Origin: Vulcanisaeta distributa JCM 11216
GTDB taxonomy: Archaea > Thermoproteota > Thermoprotei > Thermoproteales > Thermocladiaceae
NCBI RefSeq assembly: GCF_001315985.1
Contig: NZ_BBBI01000001.1
Span: 62,001 to 126,000 of the forward strand
Length of the DNA stretch: 64,000 nucleotides
Direction of reading: 5' to 3'
The notes beneath the pieces were generated by a model that saw only the letters and a program-made list of their open reading frames with translations, searched no databases and was not told the DNA's origin. This document shows positions 1-64,000 of the stretch, one piece after another. A program made the translations under genes and the position numbers. The first letter of the stretch is position 1, and every line of letters starts with the position of its first letter.

Positions 1-748
1 GATGAGGTCGTAGTGGCCGCAGGGCCCTGCGCAGTGGAGAGTTATGAGCAGGTTAGGGATACGGCCATTGCCGTTAAGGAGGCCGGGGGGCTAAGTTACT
101 TAGGGGGGGTGGTGCGTTTAAGCCTAGGACAAATCCATATAGCTTCCAGGGGGGGCTTGGTGTTGATGGGTTGAAAATACTTAGGAGGGTGGGTGACGAG
201 GTTGGTTTACCAGTCGTCTCCGAGGTCATGGATACGAGGATGGTGAAGACCGTGGCCGAGTACGTAGACATGCTACAAATAGGCGCAAGGAATGCCCAAA
301 ACTTCGACTTACTCAGGGAGGTCGGTAGGTCAGGTAAGCCCGTGCTCCTTAAACGAGGGCTCGGTAACACGGTTGAGGAGTGGCTACAGGCCGCTGAGTA
401 CATACTCCTTGAGGGTAATGGCAACGTGGTATCTGCGAGAGGGGGGGTATAAGGACCTTTGAGCACGTCACTAGGTTCACGCTGGATCTGGGCGCCGTGG
501 TTGCCGTTAAGAGACTAACGCACCTACCAGTTTGCGTTGACCCATCGCATCCAGCGGGCAGGAGGGACCTGGTAATACCGCTGGCGCTGGCCGCCATAGC
601 CGCAGGCGCTGACATGCTCCTCGTAGAGGTTCACCCAAGGCCCTGGGAAGCCCTTTCAGATGCTGAGCAGCAATTAACATTTGAGATGTTTAGGGAGTTG
701 ATGGTTAAGGGTAGGGAGGTGGCTAAGGCGATTGGTAGGTCGTTATGA
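1..748 (+). CDS. aroF: DAHP synthase, 5' truncated by window edge
   Basis: Condenses phosphoenolpyruvate and erythrose 4-phosphate to DAHP, the first step to chorismate. The product belongs to the archaeal type I DAHP synthase group related to KDO-8-phosphate synthase: visible motifs are GPCAVES at the window edge, [11 protein letters not shown] (with an extra Gly), [24 protein letters not shown] and [16 protein letters not shown]. The frame changes at the G6 run 85-90 and again near 430, where one base is missing before the CERGIRTFE motif; the intact tail runs 497-748. The stop overlaps the aroB start (ATGA), so the two are co-transcribed. Only a few N-terminal residues appear to be missing. 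Breaks are probably sequence errors. Confidence 0.9.
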
Positions 749-1793
749 GGGAGTTCACGTATAGGTCGCGGGATGGTGACGTTAAGGTACTAATCAACAT
801 TAATCATGGCGAGGCCCTGGAAAGAATTACTAAGGATTACACCGGGTGTGTTGCGTATGCCTCGAGGAGTGTCGCCAATAGGGTTAAGATTGCCTGCCCA
901 ATGATTCCGATAGTGGATGGTGAGGAGGGTAAGAGTATCGAGACGGCGCTAAACATTGTGAGGAGCGCGCATGAGATGGGCGTTGATAGGGATGGCCTAT
1001 TCATAGGCATTGGGGGGGGTGGGAGTGTCCTTGATGTCGTCGGCTTCTCCGCATCAATATACCTGAGGGGTGTTGATTATGTTAATGTCCCAACAACCAT
1101 GCTGTCCATGGTCGACGCATCCCTCGGCGGTAAGACGGGTGTTAACGCCCTGGGCCTCAAGAATGTGATTGGGGTCATTAGACAACCTAGGTACGTAATT
1201 ATTGACCTATCCTTCCTAGACTCACTGCCAATGCCTAATTACCTCGATGGCTTTGCGGAGGTTATTAAGTATGGCGTGACGATGGATAGGGAATTGCTTG
1301 ATAAGGTAATGGGTAATACCGATGGATTGATTAATAGGGACCACTCACTTCTCGAGGATGTTGTCTATAAATCGTTGAGGGATAAGGCAAACATTGTTGA
1401 GGCTGATGAACTAGATAAGGGTGGTGTAAGGGCCGTTCTTAATTATGGGCATACCGTGGGCCACGCCATAGAATCTGCGACGAACTTCTCGGTTAGCCAC
1501 GGCAGGGCGGTGGCGCTGGGCATGGTGTGCGAGGCCCGCGTTGGTGTTAAGCTGGGCTATACGCTAGGGATGTTCCTAACCTACTAGTGAATGCATTATC
1601 CATGTTCAACCTAATTAATGAGGTTAGCATTGACGTGAATAAGCTCGTAGGTGCCATGTTGAGGGATAAGAAGAGGAGTGGTGATTTCATAAAACTTCCC
1701 GTGGTTACGGACGTGGGTAGGTGGGATGTGGTTAGGGTGAGTATTAAGGAATTGACCGATTTGGTGATTAACGAATGCAGGTCTATGCCGTAA
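745..1793 (+). CDS. aroB: 3-dehydroquinate synthase
   Basis: Converts DAHP to 3-dehydroquinate using NAD and a divalent metal. It shows the NAD-binding glycine loop (GIGGGGS, one Gly more than usual at the G8 run 1012-1019), the [19 protein letters not shown] signature, and the metal-binding region GHTVGHAIE followed by [10 protein letters not shown]. The reading frame is lost at about 1565-1575, where a one-base loss separates 745-1587 from 1587-1793; joined, the protein is about 348 residues, normal for archaeal AroB. It overlaps aroF by 4 bases and aroE by 19. Confidence 0.93.
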
Positions 1794-2592
1794 TTGGTTA
1801 TCCACTCAATTACACATTATCGCCCAACATACATAATTACGTGTTCAAAGTATTGAGGGTAAGTGCGGTTTACGTACCTCTTAGGGTATCGCCAAGTAGG
1901 TTGACGCATTTCGTGGAGTTTGCCAGGGACTCCCTGGGTGGGTTTAACGTAACCATACCGCACAAGGTGGCTATTACGGGACTCATAGATGGCGTGGTGG
2001 GCCCCCCCGCCAGGAACTCGGTAGTGTGAATACCGTGGTCAATAAGGACGGTGAATTAGTGGGCTATAACACTGATTATCTAGCCATTAAACAAGCATTA
2101 GGTGAGAGGGGTTACTCAGGCGGTGATGCGTTGATAGTTGGTGCTGGTGGTGTTGCCAGGGCAGTGGCACTGGCCCTTAGGGACTTGGGTTGCTCCAGGG
2201 TTTACGTCATGAATAGGACTGTGGAGAGAGGCCGTGAATTATGTTCGCTCATTAGTTCCTGGGGTGTTGATTGTATAGCACTTGGCCTTCAGCAGAATGC
2301 CGGTGTCAAGATTCAATTACTAATCAACGCCACACCACTGGGTATTGATGGCGATTTCCCAATAAACCCAAGGAATGCCGGTGCCGGGCTTGTGCTGGAC
2401 CTCGCGTATAAGCCAGGTGGGGGGGTTACGGACCTGGTAAGACTGGCTGAGGAGGGGGGGTCTATACCTTACATTGATGGCCTCGAAATACTGGTTAGGC
2501 AAGCCCTCGAGTCGGATAGGATTTGGCTAGGTTCATTTGAAAAGCCGACTTGGCATGAGGTATTTGAGAGATTGCGCAGCGGTTTAATCTAG
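1775..2592 (+). CDS. aroE: Shikimate 5-dehydrogenase
   Basis: NADPH-dependent reduction of 3-dehydroshikimate to shikimate. The N-terminal substrate domain has NVTIPHK with the catalytic lysine and YNTDYLA; the Rossmann domain has the nucleotide loop GAGGVARAVA and the NATPLG motif. The frame shifts at about 2015-2025 next to a C7 run: replacing one lost G would restore the conserved GVNTV stretch. Joined length is about 272 residues, as expected. The 3' end meets the end of aroD on the opposite strand with a 4-base overlap. Confidence 0.92.
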
Positions 2593-3289
2593 TTATTCCC
2601 TGTTGAACATCGATAATGAACCTTAAGTAACTTTACCTTGTTGCAAAGGCCAATGCTCAATTGACCAGGGCCTGTCCTTCCACGTACTGAGCAATACATT
2701 AGGGCTGTGTTCATGATTATCGATACAGCCCTATACGCAGGGTTCCTTGGGATCACGGCTACGTGAACATCATAAATACCGAGTAACCTGAGTAGGTTTA
2801 GGAATTCATCGTCATTAATTGAGAAGACCTTGTATATCAATGCCCTGAATCTCCTTGCAACGTCTAAATCCCTAAGCGCTAATTCATATGCATTAACATC
2901 CTTGCTAAACACGTGTCTCGACAGTATTGAACCCTCGGCAATATCCCCCCCATACATCTCTGGTACTTACTCAGTAGGTTCACCTCAATGTCTGGCAACG
3001 CACCAACACTCTTGCTAAACTCAAGAATTTCATACTTGACCTCAGGGTTTACAAAATGGCTACCACCCTCCTCACGCTCCCTCACAGTGACTATGGTTGG
3101 GTAATGCGATGCGTATTCCTCAATCACGCCCTTAAGTTCCTGGGTAAGGCCTAGGTTATCTATGTAATCAAGTCTGAGTTCCACCGCTTCGCAGGATGTG
3201 GGTAAGTAATAGAATGACGGCTTCTTCAGGGGTATTGCGCATACCAGCACTGGCTTGTTCATTAGTAATTTGCCCCCCCATGTAGGCAT
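2589..3289 (-). CDS. aroD: 3-dehydroquinate dehydratase, type I (divergent)
   Basis: Dehydrates 3-dehydroquinate to 3-dehydroshikimate through a Schiff-base lysine. Evidence is the start CAIPL, the ELRLDY strand, TVRER, a likely catalytic His in SRHVF, a candidate Schiff-base Lys in IYKVF, and the C-terminal GPGQLS motif. The protein is divergent and also broken at the C7 run 2944-2950, giving pieces 2879-3289 and 2589-2957 (about 230 residues joined). It is the only gene of the chorismate cluster on the minus strand and supplies the step between aroB and aroE. A TTTTTAAG box at 3313-3320 lies 24 bases before the 3289 start; ATG at 3262 is the alternative. Confidence 0.82.
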
Positions 3290-3352
3290 TACTAGGTATT
3301 TATACGTAGAAACTTAAAAATATTGTTACTATATACTGAAATTAAATAGACC
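3290..3352. promoter_or_regulatory. Divergent promoter region aroD / aroK
   Basis: This A/T-rich 63-base gap separates the divergent aroD and aroK starts. On the minus strand TTTTTAAG (3313-3320) is well placed for a leaderless aroD mRNA. On the plus strand the same A/T block or the CTATATAC at 3329-3336 could serve aroK. Which box is used for aroK is unclear. Confidence 0.55.
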
Positions 3353-4181
3353 ATGGTATCATGGAATGAGGAATACATAACCTATGGAGGTATATCAATA
3401 ATAAATGCAATACCTGCGTGGCTTGGCGGCGCTGTAGCCGTAGACCTGAAGGTAAGGGTGAAAATCAATGATGGGCCCTGCGCCATGAATGAATTCATTA
3501 ACTTTATAATTAATTACTTAAGGGAAAGGCTTGGCATCAATAATGACGTATGTATCGAGGTTAATAGCGAGGTTCCTCCAGGCAGCGGCCTTAAGAGTAA
3601 TAGTGCCGTTGCCGTGGGTGTTATATATACCTTATTAACTTCATTGAGGGGGGGTAACGCAAGCCCTGTGGAGGTCGCTAGACTTGCTGCTGAGGTTACG
3701 AGCCCATGGCTCGTCAATAACGGGTGCATTCGATGACGCATCAGCCGCGATACTGGGAGGCGCCGTGCTCACTGACAATAAGTCGTTAAGCATCATTAAG
3801 CAATTAAACCTGGACCCGTTCACTGTGGTCATAACAGGTCATAGAGAACGTAAAAATCTGAGATCCATTGATAGGTTAAGGGCTTTGTCGGGGATTTATC
3901 AGGCATTATTTAGTATGGCGATTAACGGCGATTTATGGAGGGCAGCAACAATAAATGGAATACTCGTTGCGGAGTCCCTGGGTTATTACAATGCGTTGGA
4001 GATCATAGGCAGGGCACTAAGGCTAGGTGCAGTGGCGTCCGGCGTGAGTGGTAATGGTCCATCAATATACGCCGTATTTAGGCCAGGTGAGGAGGGACCA
4101 TTTATAGATTATATAAGTAGTACCTGGGGGGGCTACTACCTAGTCACTAAGTTAGTTGAGATTCGGTATCTGGTTTCGTGA
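3353..4181 (+). CDS. aroK: Archaeal shikimate kinase, GHMP family
   Basis: Phosphorylates shikimate with ATP. Archaea use a GHMP-fold kinase unrelated to bacterial AroK, and this protein has the GHMP loop PPGSGLKSNSAVAV and the C-terminal GVSGNGPSIYAV motif. Pieces 3353-3736 and 3684-4181 join at about 3700, where one missing base before the RAHGSSITGAFDDAS stretch breaks the frame; the joined product is about 276 residues, the family norm. The ATG at 3353 closely follows the shared promoter region. Confidence 0.92.
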
Positions 4182-4249
4182 TTTCCCATGGTTTACGTTA
4201 TTGAGAATATAGAGAATATAGGTTAGGATAATCCTTAAATATTTGTTAA

Positions 4250-5100
4250 ATGTCTGTGGTTCCGTATGGAATATCGGGAATTCCAATGGTGATTGATGGA
4301 TCAAAGATGGCAATTGACATAAATAGGCTTGTGGAGGTTAGGGATAAGGCCAGGGAATTACTGATTAGGCTTGATAAGGAGTTTCCATACATTCACCTTG
4401 GCTCCTCACTGGCTGCATTGGATATAATAAACATAATTATCAGGATCATGAGGAGAGGCAATGATGATTGTAGGGATTGGTTCATACTCAGTATTGGTCA
4501 TGTGGCGCCGGCCCTATATGCCATACTAGCCATTGAGGGCTTAATACCAGTGGATAAACTTATGGAGGTTAATCAATCATCCTCCAACATATCAACCCAT
4601 GCCGATAACCTGGACCTACCCTACATAGATGCCACAACGGGTTCACTAGGCCAGGGGGGCTCAGTATGGGTGTGGGTTTGGCATTGGCGAATAAGACCAG
4701 GGGGGGGTGCAGTGATGGTGTCGTTTATGTTTTAATGGGGGGGGATGGTGAGTTAAATGAGGGCCAGGCATGGGAGGCTTCAATGACGGCTGTTAAGTAT
4801 GGTCTCGATAACCTAGTGGCAATAGTCAGCCTGAATGGGTATCAACTCGATGGCCCAGCAAGTAGTATTAAGCCCATTAATTATGCCAGGGTATTTGAGG
4901 CAATAGGCTGGAATATTCTTTATGGTAATGGGCATGATTACGAGGACATAATTAGGCTAATCACCAAGGCACGCGGGACCAGGGGTAGGCCGACGGTTAT
5001 ATTCCTGAGCACGGTTAGGGGGGGCAGGGGGGGAATTAAGAACCTCGAAAACACCAGTAAGCAGACCCTAAATCCGCCACCAAGCCGCAATTCTCAATGA
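4250..5100 (+). CDS. Transketolase, N-terminal (ThDP-binding) subunit
   Basis: Carries the thiamine-diphosphate domain of transketolase. In archaea transketolase is often two genes, and here the partner follows directly with an ATGA overlap. Visible are TTGSLGQG, the ThDP motif [13 protein letters not shown], and the C-terminal VRGRGI-like stretch expanded at two G7 runs. Its place inside the chorismate cluster fits supply of erythrose 4-phosphate to DAHP synthase (inference). The frame breaks near the G6 run 4654-4659. The true start is uncertain: a CTTAAATA box at 4234-4241 is too close to ATG 4250, so internal starts at 4286 or 4307 are possible. Confidence 0.88.
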
Positions 5101-6017: not shown

Positions 6018-6054
6018 GGCGCATTAATAATATCGTCTCCCTTAATAATCACAC

Positions 6055-6065
6055 AAAACTTTTTA
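6055..6065 (+). promoter_or_regulatory. Likely TATA box for aroA
   Basis: AAAACTTTTTA lies about 28 bases before the ATG at 6089, matching the spacing of leaderless archaeal transcripts. Separate transcription of aroA from the transketolase pair is therefore plausible. Confidence 0.5.
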
Positions 6066-6088
6066 CCTCAAGGTGAAGACAAACCTAA

Positions 6089-9567: not shown

Positions 9568-10814
9568 TGATACCGCACTATTGGTATAACATAAATGTGG
9601 ACCTGCCAAAGCCATTACCACCACCCATTGATCCCTATGAAGCCGATTCAAGGATTGCCCTGCTCATGAGGATACTACCCAGTGAGTTAATTGACCAGGA
9701 ATTCACGCCACTCAGGTACGTGCCAATACCAGACGAGGTTAGGGAACTCTACGAGAGAATGGGTAGGCCAACACCGTTCAGGAGGGCCTATGGGCTTGAG
9801 AGGGCGTTGGGTAATGGTGTTAGGATTTACTATAAATTCGAGGGTGCACTACCGACGGGCTCCCATAAGTTAAACACGGCAATACCCCAGGTATACTACG
9901 CACTTAAGGATGGGGGGGCTAAGGAAGTCGTCACAGAGACCGGAGCGGGGGGGCAATGGGGGGGCCTGGCTGTGTCGTTGGCTGCGGCGTTGCTGGGTGT
10001 TAGGGCGACGGTATTCATGACAAGGAACTCCTACTTCAATAAGACACAGAGGGTGCTCTTCATGAGGACCTACGGCGCGGAGGTTTACCCAAGCCCCAGT
10101 GAATTGACGAAGTACGGAAAGGAAGCATTGAGAGCTAGGCCTGATCACCCAGGTAGCCTGGGCCTAGCCATCACTGAGGCGATCGAATTCACGTTAATGG
10201 GTGAGGGTAGGAAGTACATACCAGGTAGTGTGTTGGGCTTCGTAATACTCCATCAAACGGTGATTGGGCAGGAAGTGCTGCAGCAAATGCCAGAGGAGCC
10301 AGACCTAGTGATTGGGTGCGTTGGTGGTGGTAGCAACTTCAGTGGCTTCTCATTCCCAATGATAGGTGCAAAACTTAGGGGGGGTGAGGGCTTTGAAAGG
10401 ACCAGGTTCCTCGCGGTGGAGTCAAAGGCGGCGCCCAAGCTAACCAGTGGCAGGTACATGTACGACTTCCCCGACACCGGCGGATTACTACCAATGGTTA
10501 AGATGCTCACCCTAGGCCACGACTACGTACCACCACCAACACACGCAGCAGGGCTCAGATATCACGGAGCAGCGCCGGCACTATCGATGTTAGTTAAGGA
10601 GGGCCTTGTTGAGGCGAGGGCTTATGGGCAGGAGGAGGTCATGGAGCGGCTAGCTATTCGCCAGGACTGAGGCATAATACCGGCTCCAGAGTCTGCCCAT
10701 GCAATAAGGGCTGTGATTGACGAGGCTAAGAAAATGCCCAAGGGCTCGGTCATATTCTTCAACTTATCGGGACATGGTCTCCTCGACGTTGATGCTTATG
10801 GTAATGTGAGGTGA
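9564..10814 (+). CDS. trpB: Tryptophan synthase beta chain, TrpB2 type
   Basis: PLP enzyme joining indole and serine. The sequence starts [15 protein letters not shown] and has RPTPFRRA, the PLP lysine in [18 protein letters not shown] (invariant GAGQWG expanded at two G7 runs, 9947-9953 and 9958-9964), and the phosphate-binding GCVGGGSNF. The long N-terminal extension and the GSHKLN context place it in the TrpB2 group common in thermophilic archaea. The last ~50 residues (from about 10655) lie in another frame and end in VDAYGNVR at 10814, overlapping trpD by 4 bases. Confidence 0.9.
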
Positions 10815-14451: not shown

Positions 14452-16899
14452 GTGGCGGATTATAAATTCATAGTTTGGCTCAATGAGGAGGTTAAGGACC
14501 CATCAATACTGGGTGGCAAGGGTGCTAACCTGAATAAATTAGTACTCATGGGCGTACCCGTGCCGCCCGGCTTCGTAATAACGACGGAGGCATTCAATTA
14601 TTTCATGACCGTAAACGGACTTAAGAACAAGGTACTCAATGTAATTAATGAGGTTATTAGGGAGGGCAAACCTGAGGAGTACGAGGAAGCTGAGAGGAGG
14701 ATCAAGGAGTTGATAATCAGTACTGAAGTCCCTAGGGATCTCCATGATGAGATTGCCAGGGCATACATGGAGTTAAGCAGTATGTTTAATACGGATGCCG
14801 TGGCGGTAGCCGTTAGATCAAGTGCAAGTGCTGAGGACCTAAAGACCGCAAGCTTTGCCGGGCAGCAGGATACATACCTAAATGTTAGGGGGGGCGTTGG
14901 GGGGGAATTGATTAAGTACGTAAAGCACGTGTGGGCAAGCACTTACAATGCAAGGGCATTGGCGTACAGGGATGAGAAGGACATACCACATGATGAAGCT
15001 CAAATGGCAGTAATCGTGCAGAAGCTAGTAAATGGTAGGGCTGCGGGTGTTATGTTCACGATAAACCCAGTGACTGGCAATGAGAGTGAGGCGGTTATTG
15101 AGGCTTCCTGGGGCCTTGGAGAGGCCGTGGTCGGCGGTATGGTAACCCCAGACAGGTGGGTTGTGGATAAGGGTGGATTGGTGATTAAGGATAGGGTCAT
15201 ATCCAGGAAAAGCGTAATGATGGTCAGGGATGAGGCTGGGCTAACGAAAATGGTCGAGGTGCCCAGAGACCTCGTTGAGAAGCCTTCGTTGAGCGATAAG
15301 GAAGTACTCGCGCTGGCTAAAGTGGGCATCGAACTTGAGGGCCGCCTTGGTTATCCACTGGACATTGAGTGGGTCATTGATGCGGACTCGGGCAATATAT
15401 ACATTGTTCAGATGAGGCCGGAGACAGTGTATAGCGGTGGTAAGGCAAAGGTGATCAGTGAGGCAAAGGCAACGGTAGGTAAGGCCGTGGTTAAGGGCAT
15501 TGCGGCAAGCCCAGGTGTAGCTGTCGGCAGGGTAAGGATATGCCTAACCCCCCCCGAGGAGGCCAGGGCTAAGATGAGTAAGGGTGACATACTCGTGACG
15601 AAGATGACAAACCCTGACTGGGTACCCTACATGAGAATTGCCTCGGCAATAATAACCGACGAGGGTGGTATGACGAGCCACGCCGCCATTGTATCGAGGG
15701 AATTAGGTATACCAGCAATAGTGGGCACTGGAAACGCAACCTCAGTGCTTAGGGATGGTGAGGTATACACGGTAGATGCCGTGCATGGGGGGGTGGTTTA
15801 TGAGGGTGAGGCCAAGGAGTTAGTGGGTAAGGCAAAGGCCGTTAAGGAGGAGACCATGGCATCAGCCAACACTAACGAGTTAATACTACACATTTATAGG
15901 TCAATAAGGACCGCGACTGGCGTGTACATGAACTTGGGAGTTCCTGAGAAGATCGACGAGTATAAGGACCTACCCTTTGATGGTATTGGCCTAATGAGGA
16001 TTGAATTCGTGCTTTCCAGCTACATCGGTGATCATCCACTTCATCTAATCAGTATTGGTAATGAGGAGAAGTTCATCAATAAGTTGGCCGAGGGCGTGGC
16101 CTACGTGGCCAAGGCCATATACCCAAGGCCGGTCATTGTCAGGTTTAGTGACTTCAAGAGCAATGAGTATAGGCAGTTAACCGGTGGTGAGAAGTTCGAG
16201 CCTGAGGAGAGAAATCCAATGCTTGGTTGGAGGGGTGTTTCGAGGTACATAAGTAGGGAGTATGAGAAGGCCTTTAGGCTTGAGGTTAGGGCCATCAAGA
16301 GGGTTAGGGAGGAAATGAACCTGAATAACGTGCATGTAATGGCGCCATTCGTAAGGGCTCCCTGGGAACTCGAGAAATTCATGGAGATACTAAATGATGA
16401 GGGGCTCGGGAGGGATAGGGATTTCAAGGTATATGCAATGGCCGAAATACCCAGCATAGCCCTGCTTGTTGAGGACTTCGCGAAGTATGTTGATGGCTTC
16501 TCAATAGGCAGTAATGACCTGACACAACTCGTTATGGGTGTTGATAGGGATAACGACATACTGGTTAGGCAGAACCCGAGGTACTTTGACGAGAGGGAAC
16601 CGGCGGTGCTCAGGGCCATGTATGAGATAATAAGGAGGGCCCACGCAATGAATAAGAGCGTTGGCATATGTGGGCAGGCGCCATCGGTTTACCCCCCCGA
16701 GGTCACGGAGTTCCTTGTGAGGGTGGGTATTGACTACGTATCGGTGAATCCAGACGCCGTTATCTCGACTAGGCTCCTCATAGACTCAATAGAAAGGAAG
16801 GTAGTACTTGAGGAGCTACGTGAGTTAAGGAGAAGGTTAATGCCAACAGACCCAGAGGGTGAGTTCCGTGAAGTATTCAATAAGGTCTTTAAGGGATAA
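14452..16899 (+). CDS. ppsA: Phosphoenolpyruvate synthase
   Basis: Makes PEP from pyruvate and ATP in gluconeogenesis and so feeds the chorismate pathway. One intact ORF of 815 residues. Domain order: ATP-binding (GGKGANLNKL and VPPGFVIT near residues 20-45, RSSASAEDL near 125), swivelling domain with the phosphohistidine in GGMTSHAAIVSRELG near residue 410, and C-terminal PEP/pyruvate TIM barrel with GSNDLTQLVMGVDRDN and CGQAPS. Three G7 runs (14888, 14899, 15787) each seem to add one Gly in otherwise conserved stretches (NVRGGVGGEL, VHGGVVYEG). It is the longest gene here that stays in frame. Confidence 0.97.
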   Translation: MADYKFIVWLNEEVKDPSILGGKGANLNKLVLMGVPVPPGFVITTEAFNYFMTVNGLKNKVLNVINEVIREGKPEEYEEAERRIKELIISTEVPRDLHDEIARAYMELSSMFNTDAVAVAVRSSASAEDLKTASFAGQQDTYLNVRGGVGGELIKYVKHVWASTYNARALAYRDEKDIPHDEAQMAVIVQKLVNGRAAGVMFTINPVTGNESEAVIEASWGLGEAVVGGMVTPDRWVVDKGGLVIKDRVISRKSVMMVRDEAGLTKMVEVPRDLVEKPSLSDKEVLALAKVGIELEGRLGYPLDIEWVIDADSGNIYIVQMRPETVYSGGKAKVISEAKATVGKAVVKGIAASPGVAVGRVRICLTPPEEARAKMSKGDILVTKMTNPDWVPYMRIASAIITDEGGMTSHAAIVSRELGIPAIVGTGNATSVLRDGEVYTVDAVHGGVVYEGEAKELVGKAKAVKEETMASANTNELILHIYRSIRTATGVYMNLGVPEKIDEYKDLPFDGIGLMRIEFVLSSYIGDHPLHLISIGNEEKFINKLAEGVAYVAKAIYPRPVIVRFSDFKSNEYRQLTGGEKFEPEERNPMLGWRGVSRYISREYEKAFRLEVRAIKRVREEMNLNNVHVMAPFVRAPWELEKFMEILNDEGLGRDRDFKVYAMAEIPSIALLVEDFAKYVDGFSIGSNDLTQLVMGVDRDNDILVRQNPRYFDEREPAVLRAMYEIIRRAHAMNKSVGICGQAPSVYPPEVTEFLVRVGIDYVSVNPDAVISTRLLIDSIERKVVLEELRELRRRLMPTDPEGEFREVFNKVFKG

Positions 16900-19934: not shown

Positions 19935-21362
19935 ATGAGCAGGGATGGTGTAAAACTCGAACTCGCAAAGTCAGAGATATACTCAAGCATATTAGGCCAT
20001 GCAAAACCCATTAAGTGGGAGGTGGAGATTAGAGGTAAAATTACGAGAGACGTTATTGAGGAAATAAGTAGGGTCAGGGGGGGTGAGCCTGATTGGATGA
20101 GGAGGCTTAGGCTTAGGGCTCTGGAAATGTTCGAGAAGCAGCCCTGGCCCAATTGGCTTCCTCTTGAGGGTAACATCGACCTTGAATCATTGGTTTTGTA
20201 TGCCAAGCCCAGTGTTGAGAGGGCAAGGTCATGGGATGAGTTACCAAAGGAATTAAGGGAATATTACGAAGCACTGAGGATACCTGAGCTTGAGGCTAGA
20301 GTTTTATCTGGGGTTATTGGGCAGGTGGATGGCGGAGTTGTTTATGAAAATACCAAGAAGGATCTTGAGAAGGCGGGGGGGTCATTGCGATGAGCATGGA
20401 CGAGGCAGTCAGGAGATACCCTGACCTCGTTAAGCAATACTTCGCGAGGGTATTCCCGCCGGAGTATAAGTTTGCGTCATTGAACATAGCCCTTTGGGGC
20501 GGTGGCGTATTTGTGTACGTGCCACCTGGCGTCCATGTTAAGATGCCCATTGAGCTCGTTATCCTAATCAGTAGTGCTGGTATTGGGCAGTTTGAGCATT
20601 CACTAATCGTTGTTGACGAGAATGCAAGTGCTGAATTCATAGTTGCCTGTGCAGCACCGGTATTCACCGGGCTTAGCTACATGATGGTATGACTGAGGCA
20701 TACATACATAGGGGCGCCAGAGTCAGACTCGTGGACCTTAAGAATTGGAGTAGGGATGTTATTTACTTCGGCAATAATAGGGCGATTGTTGAGGAAAACG
20801 CAAATGTTGATTGGTTAAGCGGTTCCCTGGGTGGTAAGGTGACGATCGTATACCCAATGAGTGTACTTAAGGGGGGTTAATTCAAGGACCACGGTGACGA
20901 GCGTGGCCCTAGCCAACGGGCCGACATGGAAGGAGGAGGGCGCCAAGGTATTCCATAGTGCACCACATACGTATAGTAAGGTCGTGAGTAAGGGCGTTAG
21001 TCTGAACGGCGGTACATCTGTATATAGGGGGCTTGTCTATGTTAGGGAGGGCGCCAAGTATGCCAAGTCATCCGTGAGCTGCGAGTCCCTTATTCTGGAC
21101 GATAAGTCTAGGGCCTACACAATACCCCCATGAGCAGGTTTTTGAGGAGACGGCCACGGTCACACATGAAGCCTACACCGGTAGGATTGGTGAGGATAAG
21201 CTGTTCTACCTACGCAGTCGTGGCCTTAGTGAGGAGGAGGCCCGTAGCCTCATAGTCCTTGGCTACTTCCACGACATCATGGTTAACCTACCCGTTGAGT
21301 ACGTATCCATATTCAATAAGGCCATTGAGCTGGAGCTATCGAGGATGGGCGGTGTTGGATAG
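19935..21362 (+). CDS. sufB: SufB-family Fe-S assembly protein, first copy
   Basis: Beta-helix scaffold component of SufBCD. N-terminal helical segment (RLRALEMFEK, LESLVLYAKPSVERARSWDELP), then the beta-helix, with the conserved SVSCESLILDD that carries the essential C-terminal cysteine and ends in DKSRAYTIPP. The C-terminus has LFYLRSRGLSEEEARSL, typical of SufB. Fragmented into five pieces (19935-20393, 20390-20692, 20689-20880, 20861-21133, then to 21362); joined about 476 residues. A close paralog follows after a 57-base gap, sharing a nearly identical stretch of about 60-70 bases. Confidence 0.87.
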
Positions 21363-30783: not shown

Positions 30784-31443
30784 GTGGAATACCTAAAGGA
30801 CTTAATGAATACATATGACGCAATCTCAAGAGCCTACACAGAAGCCAGGGAAGAGGGACTACTAGCGAGGACACTACTCAACAACATAAACGACTTAATC
30901 AATGGGTTAAACCTAGGGTTGTACTCGACATCGGGGGGGCAGGCGCTGGCGGTAACCTGAGGGTCACAAGGTCATTTCTAAACGCAGCAATGTACATCGG
31001 CTGCGAATTGAGTCTCGGCATGATAAAAGCAGCGCAGGAACAAATTGATTGGATAAACTGCTCAGCAACGCACATACCAATAAGGCCAGGCTCTGTGGAC
31101 TTAGTTATTTCAATAGCCACGCTACACCACATACCCAAACACCTGGTGAATGCGGCCTTACGGGGGGGTATACACGAATCACTAAGTCCAGGGGGGGCTT
31201 ATTTGTGGCCACCGTGTGGGGGGCTGTAATGAGGCCACGCTTAGGAGATTAAGGCGTATTAATGATTGTGAGGGCTATATTAACTGGAGCTACGGACTTA
31301 ATGAAAGCATTACTAGGTATTACAGGCTCTATAAAAATGATGAGTTGAAGAACGAGGCTTTGAACGCGGGCTTTACTATCATTAGGAATGGAACTATTAG
31401 GTTAGGCAAATTTATTAATTATTACATAGTTTCGCATAAATAG
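30784..31443 (+). CDS. Class I SAM-dependent methyltransferase (frameshifted)
   Basis: Reads MEYLKDLMNTYDAISRAYTEARE from GTG 30784. Motif I is VLDIGAGAGGNLR if the G7 run 30933-30939 is read as four G. The middle part (30990-31229) has a D/N-rich motif III, VDLVISIATLHHIP, typical of Methyltransf_11, and the tail (31216-31443) ends NYYIVSHK. Breaks lie at the G7 runs 30933, 31164 and 31191. The layout recalls archaeal Trm9/ABH8-like tRNA methyltransferases, but that is only a possibility. Confidence 0.72.
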
Positions 31444-37554: not shown

Positions 37555-39564
37555 ATGATGAGTACACAAATCAAGAGGGTCGCGGTGATAGGATCAGGTA
37601 CTATGGGTCACGGTATAGCGGAGGTGTCCGCCCTGGCTGGTTATGAGGTTGTGATGGTCGATGTGTCGCAGGACCTACTAAACAAGGCCTTGGAGAGGAT
37701 TAAGTGGAGTCTCGATAAACTGGCTGAGAGGGGGGGTACGATTAGTAAGGAGAAGGTTGGTGAGGTCATGGGTAGAATAAAGACTTCGTTGTCTGTTGCT
37801 GAGGCTGTTAAGAATGCTGACCTAATGATTGAGGCGGTGCCGGAGAATATTGACCTTAAGAAGCAGGTATTCTCTGAGGCGGATGCAAATGCGCCTCCGC
37901 ATGCGATACTGGCCACGAACACGAGTAGTTTGCCGATAACCGAGATTGCAAGTGCCACGAAGAGGCCTGAGAGGGTTGTTGGTATTCACTTCTTTAATCC
38001 GCCGGTCCTGATGCCCCCCCTTGTTGAGGTTATTAAGGGTGCGCAGACTAGTGATGAGGTTGCCAAGAGGGCCTATGACTTCGTTAAGAGCTTGGTAAGG
38101 AGCCGATAATGGTTAATAAGGACGTGCCCGGATTCGTCGTGAATAGGATTTTAGTTGCTCTAAACTCGGCCGCGTGTTTATTGGTTGCTAATAATGTTTA
38201 TTCAATTGTTGAGGTGGATTCAGCCGTTAAGTACAGGGCTGGTTTGCCCATGGGTATTTTTGAGCTTCAGGACTTCACGGGGGGGATAGACGTTGGTTAC
38301 CTGGTTGGTTTTGCGGTTGCTGTTAGGGACCCAATGCTTAGGGTCCCATGTCCATTGATTGAGGAGTTATATAAGAAGGGTTGGCTTGGTCAGAAGAGTG
38401 GCCGTGGTTTCTATGAGTATAAGGGTGGCCCGTACGAGAGGGCTAACATACCCAGGGAGGCTGGTGAGAAGGTTGACCTGGTGCTGATTTTTGCTCCGGC
38501 GATTAACATGGCGGCTTGGTTGCTTAGGGAGGGTATAGCGAGTAGGGAGGATATTGATAAGGGCGTTAAGATGGGCCTTGGTTGGCCGAAGGGCGTATTT
38601 GAGTATGCTGATGAGTTTGGCATTGATAAGGTTGTTGAGGCCCTAAACCAGTTGTACTCCAAGTATAATTATGACCTGTTCAAGCCAGATCCACTGCTCA
38701 CGCAGATGGTTCAGGAGGGTAAGCTCGGGCAGAAGAGTGGCAGGGGGGCTTTTATGACTATGGCGCTACTGGCGTGACGGAGTTCAAGGAGATAATACTC
38801 AAGAGGGAGCCGCCGCTTGCCTGGATAATACTCAATAGGCCGCATAGGCTTAATACCTTAACCCTGACGATGCTTGATGAGGTCAGTAAGGCTCTTGATA
38901 TGCTTTGGGATGATAGGGATGTTAGGGTCGTGATAATAAGGGGGGGTGCTGGTGATAGGGCTTTCTCGGCCGGTGCTGATGTGACTTCATTCCAAGGCCC
39001 GCTTCACACCTACTACTTCTTCATTTATAATAGGAAGTTCCAGGAGGCTGTGAGTAAGATTGAGAGGTTCCCCAAGCCCGTGATAGCTGCAATAGATGGT
39101 TACGCCCTTGGCGGTGGTTTGGAGATTGCCATGGCCTGCGACTTCAGGATAGCCACGGATAGGTCTGAGCTTGGTCAGCCTGAGATTAACCTGGGCATAA
39201 TACCGGGTGCAGGAGGCACGCAGAGGTTGATTAGGTATGTTGGCCTTGGTAGGGCTAAGGAGTTGATAATGTTTGGTGATAGGATTAAGGCTGATGAGGC
39301 GTATAGGATTGGCCTTGTTAATAGGGTTGTGCCTAGGGAGAAGTTTGAGGATGAGGTTAGGTCATTTGCGCTGAGGCTTGCCCAGGGTCCACCAATAGCG
39401 CTGACCTACGCGAAGTATGCCGTGAACTTTGGGACGCAGGTGCCTGTTGACATTGGCTGATGCTTGAGGCCGCCTTCTTCAGTATGGCGGTTAACACTAA
39501 GGATGCTCAGGAGGGCGTCATGGCCTTCGCCATGAGGAGGAGGCCCGAGTTCAAGGGTGAGTGA
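37555..39564 (+). CDS. Fused 3-hydroxyacyl-CoA dehydrogenase / enoyl-CoA hydratase
   Basis: Bifunctional protein: an N-terminal NAD domain (VIGSGTMGHGIAE; ATNTSSLPITEIA; HFFNPPVLMPLVEV), two C-terminal dehydrogenase repeats (each with GQKSGRGFYEY-like ends), then a crotonase domain (AFSAGADV, ALGGGLEIAMACDFRIA, NLGIIPGAGGTQRL). Breaks near 38105, the G6 run 38743-38748 and 39455 give several apparent ORFs; reading 38743-38748 as four G makes the two halves continuous (GRGFYDYGATGVTEF). Total about 670 residues, the size of the crenarchaeal crotonyl-CoA hydratase/3-hydroxybutyryl-CoA dehydrogenase used in the 4-hydroxybutyrate carbon-fixation cycles. It may equally serve beta-oxidation. Confidence 0.87.
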
Positions 39565-56804: not shown

Positions 56805-57149
56805 TTAAACATCAATCTCGAGAAATCCATCCTGGGTAACTCTGACCTTGTAGGTTGGTAATGGTGCTTTTACATCAGCATACTCACACTTCACATCAGG
56901 CCTTACCTGTGGTTTCTCTATCATCTCGCCAGTCCTAACGTCGTACTTGGCCTGGTGTGCTGGGCATGTGGCTACGTAACCATTGACATCCGTCAGCAAG
57001 GCACACCCCCCCATGTGGGCGCATATGGCGAGCATCCCGTAGTAATTATCGCCGTACTTAACCACGAGTATTGGCTTATTATCGACCCAGGTAATCACGG
57101 AATTCCTCTTCTCAAAAACCTTGACCAGTATGGAAACCCTCCTCCACAT
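56805..57149 (-). CDS. Rieske-type [2Fe-2S] ferredoxin
   Basis: 114 residues, intact. Cluster ligands are visible as CAHMGGC and CPAHQAKYD (C-x-H ... C-x2-H); the first box normally reads CxHxGC, and the extra Gly comes from the C7 run 57006-57012. Short soluble Rieske proteins carry electrons to oxygenases or dehydrogenases; no partner is adjacent. No signal peptide or membrane segment. Confidence 0.85.
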   Translation of the reverse strand: MWRRVSILVKVFEKRNSVITWVDNKPILVVKYGDNYYGMLAICAHMGGCALLTDVNGYVATCPAHQAKYDVRTGEMIEKPQVRPDVKCEYADVKAPLPTYKVRVTQDGFLEIDV

Positions 57150-57859: not shown

Positions 57860-57882
57860 CAGTAATACAATAATGTAATACA

Positions 57883-57890: not shown

Positions 57891-57902
57891 CCCTTCACTT
57901 TA

Positions 57903-58259: not shown

Positions 58260-58287
58260 AATGCATCAATAATGTCTATCATAACGC

Positions 58288-59380
58288 TTAGTTATATATT
58301 TTGATAATCCTGTACCAATTATCCCTCTCGGCAGGTATTAAACCTAAACCCCCCCTAATTAAGTTTATGACCGCATCCCCTGTTAATACGGGCATCTTAA
58401 GCCCCCCCGTGGCCGGTATAACCCTCTCCTCATAAAGTGTACCGCCAAAGTCATTGGCGCCAAACTTAAGGGCCAGTTGCGCAACCTCAAGCCCATTCGT
58501 TAACCAACTTGACTGTATATTGGGCAGTTCGTTCTTAAACACGAGCCGGGCCACGGCAATGACCCTCAGGAGGGTGGCTGATGTCAGTGGGTACGGGACC
58601 TCCCTGGTCAACTCACTATTGCCTGGCTCAAAGTTCCAGGCTGTGAATGATAGGAATCCGTGTGTCCTCCTCTGAAGCTCAATTATCCTATACAAGTGCT
58701 CCGCCCAGTCGCTCACCGACTCCACGTGGCCGTACATCATGGTCGCATTACTCATTATACCATCCTGTGCGCCGTCTCCATTATGCCTAGCCAGGTCTCA
58801 GTATCAATCTTGTGAGGCGCAATGACTTTCCTCACACTATTAACTAGTATCTCACCGCCACCACCAGCCAACGTGTCCATACCGGCGTCCCTAAGCTATC
58901 CAGAACCTCCGAATAGCTCATCCTATGCTTCCTAGCCAGGTAATCGATCTCTATTGGGCTTAACCCATGGATTGCGACGTGAGGTAACCTAGCCTTTAAT
59001 GCCTTGAATAACTCCTCGTAATACTCAATGCCTAGCTCTGGGTTTATACCTCCCTGCACCAGGACCTGCCTAATACCAAACTCCCTGTCAATGGCGACAA
59101 CCCTCCGCACAGCCTCCTCAACACTCAATGTATAGGCCTCGGGGTGCCCAGGCGGTCTGTAGAAGGCGCAGAACCTGCAGGCTATTACGCATACATTCGT
59201 GTAATTAAGTATCATGTTTGGTATGAAGGTAACCACGTTACCGAAGTACCTCCTAGTTAGGTACTCGGCGGCGGACCCAAGCTCCCATAGGTCGGCCCTA
59301 AATAATTCCTCAATATCACGTGGGCCCAGTTTCCCCTCATAAATGGCCTTCTCAACAATGGGACTCCAATTATTACCCAC
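58288..59380 (-). CDS. mqnC: Cyclic dehypoxanthinylfutalosine synthase (radical SAM)
   Basis: Radical SAM enzyme of the futalosine route to menaquinone. The cluster motif is CVIACRFCAFYR (C-x3-C-x2-C) near residue 68, followed by GHPEAY; QVLVQGGINPELGIEYY; and the C-terminal GFLSFTAWNFEPGNSEL that separates MqnC from MqnE. GTG start at 59380 fits a TATA box at 59401-59410. Pieces 58844-59380 and 58288-58755, with a short stretch in another frame around AGMDTLAGGGGEIL; about 364 residues. Divergent from mqnE. Confidence 0.88.
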
Positions 59381-59400
59381 GTCATTACGCGTTTATGGCA

Positions 59401-59410
59401 TTATTTAAGT
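59401..59410 (-). promoter_or_regulatory. TATA box of mqnC
   Basis: On the minus strand CTTAAATAAT is centred 25 bases before GTG 59380. The mqnC and mqnE promoters share a 112-base divergent gap. Confidence 0.55.
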
Positions 59411-59458
59411 TATTACGTTATGTTTTTAATAATGAAGTAAATAGAATCAAAAGACCAA

Positions 59459-59468
59459 TACTTAAAAG
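59459..59468 (+). promoter_or_regulatory. TATA box of mqnE operon
   Basis: TACTTAAAAG is centred 29 bases before ATG 59493. Confidence 0.5.
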
Positions 59469-59492
59469 GAATTCAAATACCAACGCGGTGTC

Positions 59493-60587
59493 ATGTGCAC
59501 AATAGATGATTTACGTAATGCCGTAATCAACGGCATTACTAAGGCTGATGCTGAGGAATTCATGACGGAGTGCGACTTTAAGGATCTGGCCCGTGTCGCG
59601 AGTGAGCTTACGAGGAAGATAACTGGGGGGGATACCGCGACCGTGGTTAACAATGTCGTGATCAACTACTCAAACATATGCGTGGCCCAATGCCCAATAT
59701 GCGCCTTCTACAGGCCTAAGGGCCACCCTGAGGCCTACGTTAGAACCCCCTGAGGAAATAACAAAGGGCGTACTGGAGGCCAAGGCACGCTTTGGCGTGA
59801 CGGAACTGCACATAAACGGCGGATTCAACCCAGACCTAGGCATTGAGTACTTCGAGAATGTATTTAGATCAGTTAAGAAGGCGGCGCCTGACGTAATTAT
59901 TAAGGGGCCCACGGCAGCGGAGATAGACTTCTACGCAAGGGTTTGGAGAATGAGCACGAGAGAGGTGCTTGAGAGGTTTAGGGAGGCTGGTCTTGATGCG
60001 CTTAGCGGTGGTGGCGCGGAGATACTGAATGAGGAGGTTAGGAGGGTGATAACTCCGTATAAGTTCAATGCCGAGACCTGGCTCAGGATCCAGGAGGAGC
60101 CCATAGGGTTGGTCTTATGAGCAATGCAACCATGCTCTACGGCCATATCGAGAAGCCAAGGCACATCGTCGAGCACATCTTTGCAATTAAGGAGGTTCAG
60201 GAGAGGACCCATGGAATACTCCTCTTCATACCAATAAAGTTCGTTCCCTGGAACACGAAATTGTATAGGGATGGTCTAGTTAAGGGACCAGCACCAACAG
60301 AGTATGATGTAAAGGTCGTAGCCATTTCAAGGCTGATACTTGGTGATTCCATTAAGAGGATAGGTGCGTACTGGATCTCAACGGGTAAAAGATTGGCCTC
60401 GACGTTATTGATGGCCGGCGCCAACGACCTCGTTGGCACTATGATTAATGAGCAGGTACTTAAGCAGGCGGGTTCTAGGGAGTCAGTGACACTCGGCGAG
60501 TTGGCGCACATAGCCCGTGAGGCTGGGTTAAGGCTGTTCCTGAGAGATACGTTCCATAGAATACTCACTGAGGTAGGCAATGCATAG
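59493..60587 (+). CDS. mqnE: Aminofutalosine synthase (radical SAM)
   Basis: Joins the chorismate-derived enolpyruvyl-benzoate to SAM to form aminofutalosine. The radical SAM motif is CVAQCPICAFYR near residue 67; the C-terminal half has LLFIPIKFVPWNTKL, IGAYWISTGKRLAS and GANDLVGTMINEQVLKQAG, typical of MqnE. Pieces 59493-59753, 59797-60120 and 60117-60587; about 364 residues. The divergent mqnC and the following mqnA and mqnD complete the pathway steps present here. Confidence 0.87.
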
Positions 60588-60589
60588 AG

Positions 60590-61336
60590 ATGGTGATGAT
60601 GAACATAGTCAGGCTAAAGTATGCTCACTCAGACCCACTCTTCTATTACTCGGGGCTTAACCCAATATGGGCTAGCAATAATGAGTCAATTAGGCTGCTT
60701 CTTGAGGGCAAGGCAAGCATCGGCTTTGTACCGCTAACGTACGCTGCACATAACTGTGATGTGTTATATGTCGTCCCTAGGTTCGCTATTTACAGTGACG
60801 GGCCAGTTATATCCGCTAGGTTATTCAGGGGGGGCCTGGGCAGTGGGTACGCGGCCGTTAGTGACACAAGCGTTAATGCAATGGCCGTGAGGAGACTATT
60901 GGGTATTGACCTTAAGGTCATTGATGATCCATACAGGGCATTGAGGGATTTCGGAGCTGTGCTCGTTATTGGTGATGATGCCTTAAGAATGGTCGATGCT
61001 GGTTATCCGTATATACTGGACGTGGGTGAGCTATGGAGGGAGAGGGTAGGCCTGCCTCTGGTGTATGCGGTCATGGCCGTGACTAGGAATTATAATGAGG
61101 AGGAGTTAAACGTGGTTATAAATACCATCGAGAAATCTCTCGATCTCTTTGAGGAGGACCCAGAACCTGTTATTCAGTATACCGCGGGCAGGCTTGGCGT
61201 ATCCAGGGAATTAATTAGGCAGTACTTCAGGGCTATTAGGTATAGGGTCGATGATAGGGTTATTTCAGGGATTAATGAGGAACTGAGGACATTCGGTATA
61301 AATAATTGCCTACGTTTCCTAGGCAATAAAACTTAA
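60590..61336 (+). CDS. mqnA: Chorismate dehydratase
   Basis: Removes water from chorismate to make 3-(1-carboxyvinyloxy)benzoate, the entry to the futalosine pathway. 248 residues, intact, with a substrate-binding-protein-like fold: SIGFVPLTYAA, YAAVSDTSVNAMAVRRLLG, AVLVIGDDAL and LDVGELWRERVGLPLVYAV, all standard MqnA segments. It begins 3 bases after mqnE, so it is in the same operon. Confidence 0.9.
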   Translation: MVMMNIVRLKYAHSDPLFYYSGLNPIWASNNESIRLLLEGKASIGFVPLTYAAHNCDVLYVVPRFAIYSDGPVISARLFRGGLGSGYAAVSDTSVNAMAVRRLLGIDLKVIDDPYRALRDFGAVLVIGDDALRMVDAGYPYILDVGELWRERVGLPLVYAVMAVTRNYNEEELNVVINTIEKSLDLFEEDPEPVIQYTAGRLGVSRELIRQYFRAIRYRVDDRVISGINEELRTFGINNCLRFLGNKT

Positions 61337-61338
61337 TA
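61328..61338 (+). promoter_or_regulatory. TATA-like box before mqnD
   Basis: AAAACTTAATA is centred about 28 bases before ATG 61361. It overlaps the mqnA stop region, so mqnD may have its own promoter in addition to read-through. Confidence 0.4.
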
Positions 61339-61360
61339 CCACGGGTAAGGCCTTAGCCTG

Positions 61361-62180
61361 ATGGAGTTATTAATTGGGCATAGTCCTGACCCAGATGACG
61401 CATTCATGTTCTACGCACTGAAGAAAGGCTTAATTAAAGCGTCATTCACGGTAAGGGAATTCCTAGTCGATATTGAAACACTGAATAAATTGGCGATACA
61501 TGGTAGGATTGACGTCACGGCAGTGAGCACGCACGCCATGGCATACATAGGAAGTAAATACTACATACTCAGGGTCGGCGCTTCCATGGGGGGGCTTAGG
61601 TACGGCCCCCGTCGTCGTGGGTAATACCGCAAAGCCCGAGTTAGTCGCGGTACCCGGCACGTACACCACAGCAACACTATTAGTTAGGCTCGCAATGCCT
61701 AATGTAAAGACCGTAGAGGTACCTTTCGATAAGATCATGGATGCGGTAAAGGCTGGTGTAGTTGATGCAGGTGCATTAATACATGAGGGGGGGCAAATAA
61801 CTTATGAGAGGTATGGGCTTAGGAAGATCATAGACCTAGGTGAGTGGTGGTATGAGGAGACGAAGCTGCCAACACCCCCCCTTGGCCTGGACGTTGTTAA
61901 GGCCTCCCTGGGAATTGACGTGGCCAAGGCCGTTAAGGAGGCACTACTGGAGTCTATTGGGTACGCAATGAGTCACAGGGAGGAGGCCCTGGCGTATGCC
62001 ATGGAGTTCTCGAGGGGGGGCCTAAACATGGTTGACACTGATAGGTTCGTTAAGATGTACGTGAATGAGTACACCATGGACATGGGGGGGATTGATGGCG
62101 AGAGGGCAATTAGGGTGTTACTAGAAATGGGTCATGAAGATGGTTTACTGCCTGAACCCCCCCAATTGTTATTCGTCTAG
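61361..62180 (+). CDS. mqnD: 1,4-dihydroxy-6-naphthoate synthase
   Basis: Converts cyclic dehypoxanthinyl futalosine to 1,4-dihydroxy-6-naphthoate. Starts GHSPDPDDAFMFYALKKG (family SPCPNDTFIF), then VDIETLNKLAIHGRIDVTAVS, VPGTYTTATLLV, DAGALIHEGGQ and WWYEETKLPTPPLGL. Pieces 61361-61624 and 61617-62180, with a break near 61600 after a G7 run (61588-61594). About 273 residues. Confidence 0.88.
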
Positions 62181-62185
62181 CTCAC

Positions 62186-63252
62186 TTAATCACCACACCC
62201 AGTTCGGTTAGTCTACTTATTTCATCATGCGATAGGCCAAGTTCCATTAAAATCTCCGCGGTGTTTTCGCCCAGTCTCGGTGCCCTGCCCCCCCGCGACC
62301 TAGGTCTAGCGTCATTTATTACTAATGGGTTGAGGAATTCATTCACATTAAAACCTCTCGCAACTAATTGAGGGTCTTTCTCAAGGTCCTTTATGGAATT
62401 TACGGGGGGGCCGCTGGTACGTCATGGCTCCAAAGGAGTTTGAGAGCCTCGGCAACGGTGTACTTACCGAATTCCCTACTTAGCTCATTAATGACCTCCT
62501 TATCGAACTGCCTATTGATTAGGTCTTCACGGTTTAAGGCCCTGCATAACCCTCGCCAGAACTTAGTCTCTATGGCACCAATGGTTATGTAACCATCCCT
62601 GCATTTGTAAACGTTATAGAACGGGTACTTACCAGTTAGGCTTGGGTCTGCGCCCTCGTAGGTGATCGCCATGTTCAACGTATTGAAGAGCAACGCGGCC
62701 TCCATCATGGAGACCTCAACCCTACCACCAACACCACGTAGTAGTAGGGTTAGGACACCAATCACGCATAGCAGGGCTGAACCGACATCAGCAACCTGCA
62801 CAGTAAGTGGCCTTGGCACTCCATCACTGAATAGACCTGGGTCTAGTAGGCCCGCAACGCTGACCGTATTAATGTCGTGGTTTGGAAGCCTGAGTACGGT
62901 CCACCCTCTCCATAACCATTTATTGAGCAGTAAACAATCCTGTCATTAATTTCCCTGAGTCTCCCATAATCAATGCCAAGCTTCTCAGCAACACCGGTCT
63001 AAAGCCCTCGACAATCACGTGACTACTCCTGACCAATTTATAGAATAATTCCCTGCCCTCCTCAGTCTTCAGATTAATTGCTACGCTCCTTTTGCCGGCA
63101 TTCAACCATTCAAAAAGCTTTGGCGAGATCTCCCTTAGGTAATCACCGGTCTCCGTATCCTCAACCTTAATAACGTCAAAGCCAAGGTCAGCCAGTATTC
63201 TCGTCGCAACACCACCAGGAAAAAGCCTAGTTAGGTCTAAAACCCTAAACAT
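62186..63252 (-). CDS. Class III CoA-transferase (CaiB/BaiF family)
   Basis: Starts VLDLTRLFPGGVATRILADLGFDVIKVE, the classical first motif of the family; GKRSVAINLKTEEGRELF; later GGRVEVSMMEAALL, YNVYKCRDGYITIGA and the C-terminal RAPRLGENTAEIL. The catalytic Asp region may lie near VADVGSALL. Pieces 62920-63252 and 62400-62819, with tail to 62186 in another frame (breaks near 63003, 62900, 62405); about 355 residues. Moves CoA between acids or racemises 2-methylacyl-CoA; substrate not determinable. It converges with mqnD, 5 bases apart. Confidence 0.83.
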
Positions 63253-63267
63253 TGCGTATGCTGCATA

Positions 63268-63281
63268 CTTTAATTAATAAG
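63268..63281 (-). promoter_or_regulatory. TATA box of the CoA-transferase gene
   Basis: On the minus strand CTTATTAATTAAAG is centred about 23 bases before ATG 63252. Confidence 0.45.
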
Positions 63282-63300
63282 TGTTTAACACGTGGTTGAT

Positions 63301-63814
63301 TTAGGGATTGCCATTGTTCCTCTGTCCGTTGTTCTTAACCATGAACCATGTCCCTATCCCAACTGCACACAGTTTCTTGTTTGCATCGTATACATGACCC
63401 TCGCAACGGCCAAGTGCTTACCAGCCCTGATCACCCTGCCCTCCACAGTGAATGGCCCATTTATCAACGGCTCAAGGAAGTGAACCTTAAGCTCTGCAGT
63501 GTATTGATTAATGCCATCGTTAACGGTCATGACGGCAGTGCCAAGTACGGTATCGATCACGGTCATAACAACGCCACCGTGAACCATACCCCCCCCTGCC
63601 TAAGTATCTCACGCTTATATGGAAAAACAGCCTTAACATAGCCATCATTTACCTCCACAAACTCAAGGCCGATGAAGTTGAATAAGGGCTCATTACGCAG
63701 GTAATTGTTCATTAAATCAGCAATGTTAAGACCAGTGGATCTAGCCTTAAGAAACAACTCCCTAACACTACTTATTGATCCAGTCATTTTGATCAACTCA
63801 TCCCATGCTGACAC
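63301..63814 (-). CDS. Hotdog-fold thioesterase (PaaI-like)
   Basis: Acyl-CoA thioesterase family. The N-terminal part (63563-63814) ends at the G7 region around VWFTVALL; the rest (63354-63587) has VHGGVVMTVIDTVLGTAV, where the HGG plus later Asp are typical of PaaI-type enzymes, then TAELKVHFLEP. A short tail to TAA 63301 reads KLCAVGIGTWFMVKN in another frame. About 171 residues joined. GTG 63814 fits a TATA box at 63835-63845. Same strand as the CoA-transferase 48 bases downstream, so the pair may share a role. Confidence 0.82.
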
Positions 63815-63834
63815 GTAATATAGGTGAGGGAAGG

Positions 63835-63845
63835 CCTATTTAAAC
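63835..63845 (-). promoter_or_regulatory. TATA box of the thioesterase gene
   Basis: Read on the minus strand, GTTTAAATAGG is centred 26 bases before GTG 63814. Confidence 0.5.
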
Positions 63846-63893
63846 AAAGTTATGCTGATAAGTAAATAGTGATAAGTAACCTATAAAGTTAAA

Positions 63894-64000
63894 GATGACC
63901 TACACAGGGCAAGCGAGTCCAACAGTACTACCTAGTGGTAGCCCCAATGGCTAAGGGCTACACAATTAGTTAGGGGGGGTAGTTCGAAAATAATAACCCA
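63894..64000 (+). other. Possible 5' end of an unidentified gene
   Basis: A candidate ATG at 63894 (MTYTGQASPTVLPSG) follows a CTATAAAGTTAAAG stretch, suggesting that a plus-strand gene starts here and continues past the window. The frame hits a stop after 19 codons, possibly another sequence error, and the rest is too short to identify. Confidence 0.25.

What the first reader, a model, noticed from the sequence alone, without database searches (positions are those of the whole stretch)
1..64000. Exact seven-base G/C tracts fill the window, often adding one glycine to invariant motifs
Runs of G or C of length 6-8, nearly always 7, recur about three per kb on both strands (I counted roughly 33 in the first 10 kb by eye), while runs of 5 and 6 are rare. 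Where the motif is near-invariant the run carries one surplus Gly: TrpB GAGQWG (9947-9953 and 9958-9964), DAHP synthase KPRT-PYSFQG region (103-109, 149-155), PEP synthase NVRG (14888, 14899), crotonase RGAGDRAFSAG (38940-38946), Rieske CxHxGC (57006-57012), methyltransferase DIGAGAGG (30933-30939). True length 4 (sometimes 5-6) seems to be reported as about 7. Not all runs change: five-G runs at 21027, 22529 and 32444 read normally. The most economical reading is a systematic base-calling or consensus error; the alternative is a genome with real, unstable poly-G tracts, which would be striking.
Basis: partly seen in the sequence, partly recalled or inferred. Interest (0 to 1): 0.7.

Follow-up and report, generated by a model that had tools for sequence, protein, structure and literature searches.

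The report
Sequencing artefact: inflated G/C runs
This draft genome of a hot-spring archaeon contains thousands of short runs of G or C written about three bases too long, a data-production error and not biology, which adds false glycines and prolines to its predicted proteins.

Summary
The window holds 154 exact-7 and 18 exact-8 G/C runs against 81 of length 4, 22 of 5 and 14 of 6. The spike is genome-wide: 4803 exact-7 runs, 502 of exactly 8, none of 9 or more.

Against a 95%-identical relative, G/C runs of 1-3 agree at about 99%, A/T runs of 4 agree in 318 of 322, but G/C runs of 4 are read as 7 or 8 in 225 of 389. The same inflation sits inside the 16S rRNA gene: eleven runs of 7 are runs of 4 in all six relatives compared, which a working ribosome should not tolerate. 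Only one other of 398 sampled phylum genomes shows the spike, G008, the JCM 11217 draft. In a one-gene tree each affected genome is sister to an unaffected one, and they do not detectably agree on which sites are inflated (54 sites, P = 0.41).

It is an assembly or base-calling artefact. The draft with the neighbouring accession prefix was made on the Ion Torrent PGM (PMC9872577), but the step that adds three bases is unidentified and does not match ordinary PGM error.

The parts
1..64000 (.). Whole window: 154 exact-7 and 18 exact-8 G/C runs scattered on both strands, mostly in place of runs of four and five
   Evidence: Run-length table; mapping of this window to G002: true 4 read as 3 (2), 4 (54), 5 (11), 6 (5), 7 (94), 8 (3)
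103..109 (+).
149..155 (+). G7 in the same region; G4 in G002, G007 and G004
9947..9953 (+).
9958..9964 (+). G7 in the TrpB-like frame; G4 in G002, G007 and G004
14452..16899 (+).
30933..30939 (+).
38940..38946 (+).
57006..57012 (-).
21027..21031 (+). A G5 run that was not inflated; five in G002 and G007

Best explanation
The tracts are a data-production artefact of this draft assembly. During base calling, read correction or consensus building, many G or C runs whose true length is 4 or more were written too long, most often by three bases and never beyond 8 (225 of 389 true runs of 4 became 7 or 8). Runs of three or fewer and most A/T runs were left alone. A +3 change keeps the reading frame and so appears as one surplus glycine or proline; the rarer +1, +2 and +4 changes shift it and may contribute to the low completeness (67.75%). 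Shown: the inflation, its base and length specificity, its presence in rRNA, its absence from sister genomes, and the ceiling at 8. Inferred: that it arose in the processing of a shared sequencing batch. Unknown: the exact step.
For: (1) Length mapping against G002, 95% identical: true 4 -> 2:1, 3:5, 4:120, 5:22, 6:16, 7:220, 8:5; true 5 -> 5:12, 6:3, 7:7, 8:12; true 3 -> 7 in 2 of 2568; A/T runs of 4 -> 4 in 318 of 322. Control pairs G002-G007 and G004-G007 show no inflation. (2) The 1120 bases of SSU rRNA gene held in this assembly differ from G002 by 6 substitutions but 56 inserted bases; eleven runs of 7 are exactly 4 in all six relatives compared, for example CCT[GGGG]AGTACGGC and AAA[GGGG]ATTAGATA. 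The covariance model matches the gene only in four pieces. (3) Survey of 398 sampled phylum genomes: G000 4803, G008 3857, next highest 340 exact-7 runs. (4) Tree of one gene on homopolymer-compressed DNA: (G000,G002) 1.00 and (G007,G008) 0.996; G002 and G007 are unaffected. (5) No run of 9 or more in either affected genome, but 502 and 435 runs of exactly 8. (6) Which sites are inflated shows no clear link to neighbouring bases, to position along the contig (183 state changes, 185.5 expected) or to the same site in G008 (54 sites, P = 0.41, low power). (7) G008 matches NZ_BBBJ, V. distributa JCM 11217; the draft with prefix BBBK is stated to be Ion Torrent PGM (whole text).
Against: No raw reads and no independent assembly of this same strain were available. 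Ordinary PGM error does not predict +3 in G/C only: Bragg et al. (PMC3623719; abstract, and section 11 part 1 of 2) report mainly deletions in runs of two or more, no significant GC-versus-AT grouping and the largest effects in T or A flows. A/T runs are not wholly clean: the eight A/T runs that are 7 or 8 long in G002 are all shorter here, though this could be error in G002. Sites more than 300 bases from the next G4 site are inflated a little less (48% of 77), untested.
Confidence: 0.98

Rival explanations
1. Real, genome-wide expansion of G4 tracts to G7 by replication slippage in this lineage, tolerated because +3 keeps the reading frame.
Against: The same +3 changes dominate in SSU rRNA of G000 and among runs of 4 in LSU rRNA of G008, where no reading frame exists. 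The two affected genomes are not sisters in the one-gene tree and do not share sites beyond chance. There is no tail past 8.
Confidence: 0.005
2. Ordinary Ion Torrent/454 flow-call homopolymer error carried through to the consensus, with no special software step.
For: The draft with the neighbouring prefix (BBBK) was made on the Ion Torrent PGM. Small indels at G/C runs of 1-3 are also seen, and completeness is low in the JCM drafts G002 (63%), G008 (67%) and G004 (81%).
Against: A/T runs of 4 agree in 318 of 322 cases. The published PGM profile is mostly deletions in runs of two or more with no GC grouping. Drafts JCM 14467 and JCM 16159 show no spike, although their platform was not established here.
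Confidence: 0.15
3. A consensus or read-correction step with a nearly rule-like behaviour (acts on G/C runs of 4 or more, mostly adds three, stops at 8) run on one batch of drafts. This is the more specific form of the best explanation.
For: Sharp threshold between 3 and 4, mostly 0-or-+3 changes, the ceiling at 8, strand symmetry (G: 120 of 219; C: 105 of 170 read as 7 or 8), and no clear dependence on context.
Against: No software is identified. Only about 58% of true runs of 4 are changed to 7 or 8, and longer runs change by less than three at times (5->7, 7->8), so it is not a simple deterministic rule.
Confidence: 0.8

Closest known systems
Homopolymer length errors of flow-based sequencing (454, Ion Torrent PGM)
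   Same: Indels confined to homopolymers, variable from site to site, broken genes and reduced completeness
   Different: Here nearly restricted to G/C, threshold at 4, mostly exactly +3, ceiling at 8; published PGM error is mainly deletion in runs of two or more (PMC3623719, abstract and section 11 part 1)
Phase-variable poly-G tracts of bacteria such as Neisseria (features recalled; PMC5320596 seen only in the listing)
   Same: Runs of about 7 or more G
   Different: Those are few, sit in particular genes and vary in length; here thousands of tracts occur, also inside rRNA

Membership tests
Sequencing/assembly artefact | Absent from close relatives sequenced independently | tested here: met
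   G002 (95% identical) has four where this has seven; G007, a finished 454 genome, and G010, Illumina plus Nanopore, have 2 and 5 exact-7 runs in all
Sequencing/assembly artefact | Appears where biology forbids it (rRNA) | tested here: met
   SSU rRNA of G000 and LSU rRNA of G008
Sequencing/assembly artefact | Absent from the raw reads or from resequencing of the same strain | not testable with these tools
   No reads held; no second assembly of the strain found
Ordinary Ion Torrent PGM homopolymer error | Affects A/T as well as G/C runs, with deletions dominating in longer runs | tested here: not met
   A/T runs of 4 agree in 318 of 322, and changes at G/C runs of 4 or more are mostly insertions; profile from PMC3623719. 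The eight longest A/T runs are shorter than in G002, which may be an error of either genome.
Phase-variable or slipping poly-G tracts | Length distribution with a tail | tested here: not met
   No run of 9 or more against 502 of exactly 8
Phase-variable or slipping poly-G tracts | Tracts shared by close relatives | tested here: not met
   The sister genomes lack the spike

The most novel reading that the evidence does not exclude
A so far undescribed, nearly rule-like consensus error (G/C only, true length 4 or more, mostly +3, ceiling 8) is present in at least two public archaeal drafts that serve as species representatives, and is recognisable by a spike at length 7 in a run-length histogram. 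Five searches of the held library on homopolymer or Ion Torrent errors and JCM drafts listed 82 titles of a larger number of hits; none of those titles or abstract openings describes this pattern.
Probability: 0.6. Interest if true: 0.25.

Novelty: not a real feature. Interest (0 to 1): 0.12.

Why it matters
It matters as quality control. Both affected assemblies are held as species representatives. Their proteins carry false glycine/proline insertions and some frame breaks, and their rRNA genes are corrupted, which can mislead completeness estimates, gene counts, structure prediction and phylogeny. A histogram of G/C run lengths shows the fault at once.

Tried and rejected
Context as the cause: bases at -6..+6, strand, flank G+C, distance to the next G4 site and position along the contig do not clearly separate inflated from uninflated sites. 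The largest contrasts were AG4T (68 of 102 inflated) against CG4A (5 of 14), and 48% of the 77 sites more than 300 bases from the next G4 site against 58-62% of closer ones; neither was tested and there were many comparisons. Selection for +3 as the reason for the length: rejected, since +3 also dominates in rRNA. Homopolymer-compressed pairwise BLAST as a measure of indels gave uninterpretable numbers, because substitutions turn into gaps; only the tree from that call is used. The first MAFFT alignment of SSU genes mixed strands (G007, G010 and G003 lay reversed) and is not used for counts. One search included 100 bases upstream of the SSU gene and about 110 past the LSU match; one search repeats both counts without them and replaces them. 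tRNA and Rfam scans of the window found nothing. The run-length mapping counts only runs whose flanking 2 or 3 alignment columns match and whose homologue is a pure run; other runs were dropped.

Full report
What was claimed.

In the 64-kb window G/C runs number 81 of length 4, 22 of 5, 14 of 6, 154 of 7 and 18 of 8; A/T runs fall off smoothly. Over the whole assembly (2,422,819 bases, 65 contigs, completeness 67.75%) there are 2522 + 2281 exact-7 runs, 293 exact-6, 502 exact-8 and none of 9 or more.

Where the genome sits. G007, same genus, has the length given for V. distributa IC-017T (2,374,137 bp; abstract opening of PMC3035369 in the listing; contig length), a finished 454 genome (passages). 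G010 has the length of the finished V. souniana IC-059T genome (2,432,148 bp), made with Illumina and Nanopore. The window is 95.1% identical to G002, 82.1% to G007, 82.2% to G008 and 78.6% to G004, gaps counted. The window's own strain was not identified.

Site-by-site lengths. Against G002 over 166,372 aligned columns, true G/C runs of 4 are read here as 2 (1), 3 (5), 4 (120), 5 (22), 6 (16), 7 (220) and 8 (5). True runs of 5 are read as 5 (12), 6 (3), 7 (7) and 8 (12); true 6 as 6 (1), 7 (1) and 8 (2). Of 2568 true runs of 3, 2540 stay 3 and 2 are read as 7. A/T runs of 4 stay 4 in 318 of 322 and runs of 5 stay 5 in 108 of 115; the eight A/T runs that are 7 or 8 long in G002 are all shorter here, which may be an error of either genome. 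The control pairs G002-G007 and G004-G007 give 79 of 80 and 47 of 47 runs of 4 unchanged, while G008-G007 shows the same inflation as the window (38 of 68 runs of 4 read as 7).

The rRNA test. The archaeal SSU covariance model matches this assembly's gene only in four pieces; the gene also runs into a contig end, so 1120 bases are held. Against G002 those 1120 bases differ by 6 substitutions but carry 56 extra bases and lack 1. Of 22 scored runs of 4, eleven are read as 7, three as 5 and eight as 4; of 7 scored runs of 5, three are read as 8, three as 7 and one as 6. The eleven 4->7 sites are four bases long in all six relatives compared (G002, G003, G004, G007, G010, G011). They include CCTGGGGAGTACGGC and AAAGGGGATTAGATA; that these are near-universal in rRNA is recalled. 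The part of G008's LSU rRNA that is held shows the same: 20 of 40 scored runs of 4 read as 7 against G007, with 14 substitutions but 132 extra bases in 2166. Insertions of three bases at eleven conserved places of a gene otherwise nearly identical to its relatives are not compatible with a working ribosome (inference from established knowledge). No codon frame explains +3 there.

Phylogeny and independence. Of 398 phylum genomes sampled evenly from a larger group, only G000 (4803) and G008 (3857) show the spike; the next highest, G149, has 340. A FastTree of the PEP-synthase gene after homopolymer compression joins G000 to G002 (1.00) and G008 to G007 (0.996), so each affected genome is sister to an unaffected one (one gene only). 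At 54 homologous G/C runs of 4 or more in both genomes, inflation in one is not associated with inflation in the other (P = 0.41, low power). Along the contig inflated and normal sites alternate as if at random (183 changes, 185.5 expected).

Mechanism. The pattern is a threshold at 4, an increment that is mostly 0 or 3, a stop at 8, G and C alike, and A and T nearly untouched. The draft with the neighbouring accession prefix (BBBK, V. souniana) is stated to come from the Ion Torrent PGM (PMC9872577, whole text); BBBJ (G008) and BBBK are listed together in PMC5069417 (passages and section 7). That G008 and this assembly share that platform is inferred. Published PGM error is mainly deletion in runs of two or more, with no significant GC-versus-AT effect (PMC3623719, abstract and section 11 part 1 of 2), so a later consensus or correction step is the more likely source. 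I could not identify it.

Consequences. Over the 427 reference runs of 4 or more that could be scored, 232 changed by +3, 133 by 0, and 62 by -2, -1, +1, +2 or +4, amounts that break the frame where they fall in coding sequence. Small indels at shorter runs are present too, some of them possibly errors of G002.

Verdict. A real pattern in the file, not in the organism: an artefact.

Noticed in passing
L065, G008: The draft named V. distributa JCM 11217 is only 84.2% identical (gaps counted, 55 kb) to the V. distributa type strain genome, so the species label looks doubtful; it also carries the same run-length artefact.
   Followed up: partly
L094, G002:C5:26327-28753: The JCM 16159 draft lacks the 7-run spike, but its PEP-synthase gene matches in four pieces with stops and completeness is 63%, so it may have a separate small-indel problem.
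   Followed up: no
L137 (G000:C19:39187-40306): The 16S rRNA gene of the own assembly runs into the end of a contig and is cut off; a search with the archaeal LSU model found no match in the assembly.
   Followed up: no
window 1-64000: No tRNA was found by ARAGORN and no Rfam family reached its threshold in the window; about one tRNA would be expected from the 46 of V. souniana, so this may be chance or damage by run errors.
   Followed up: no
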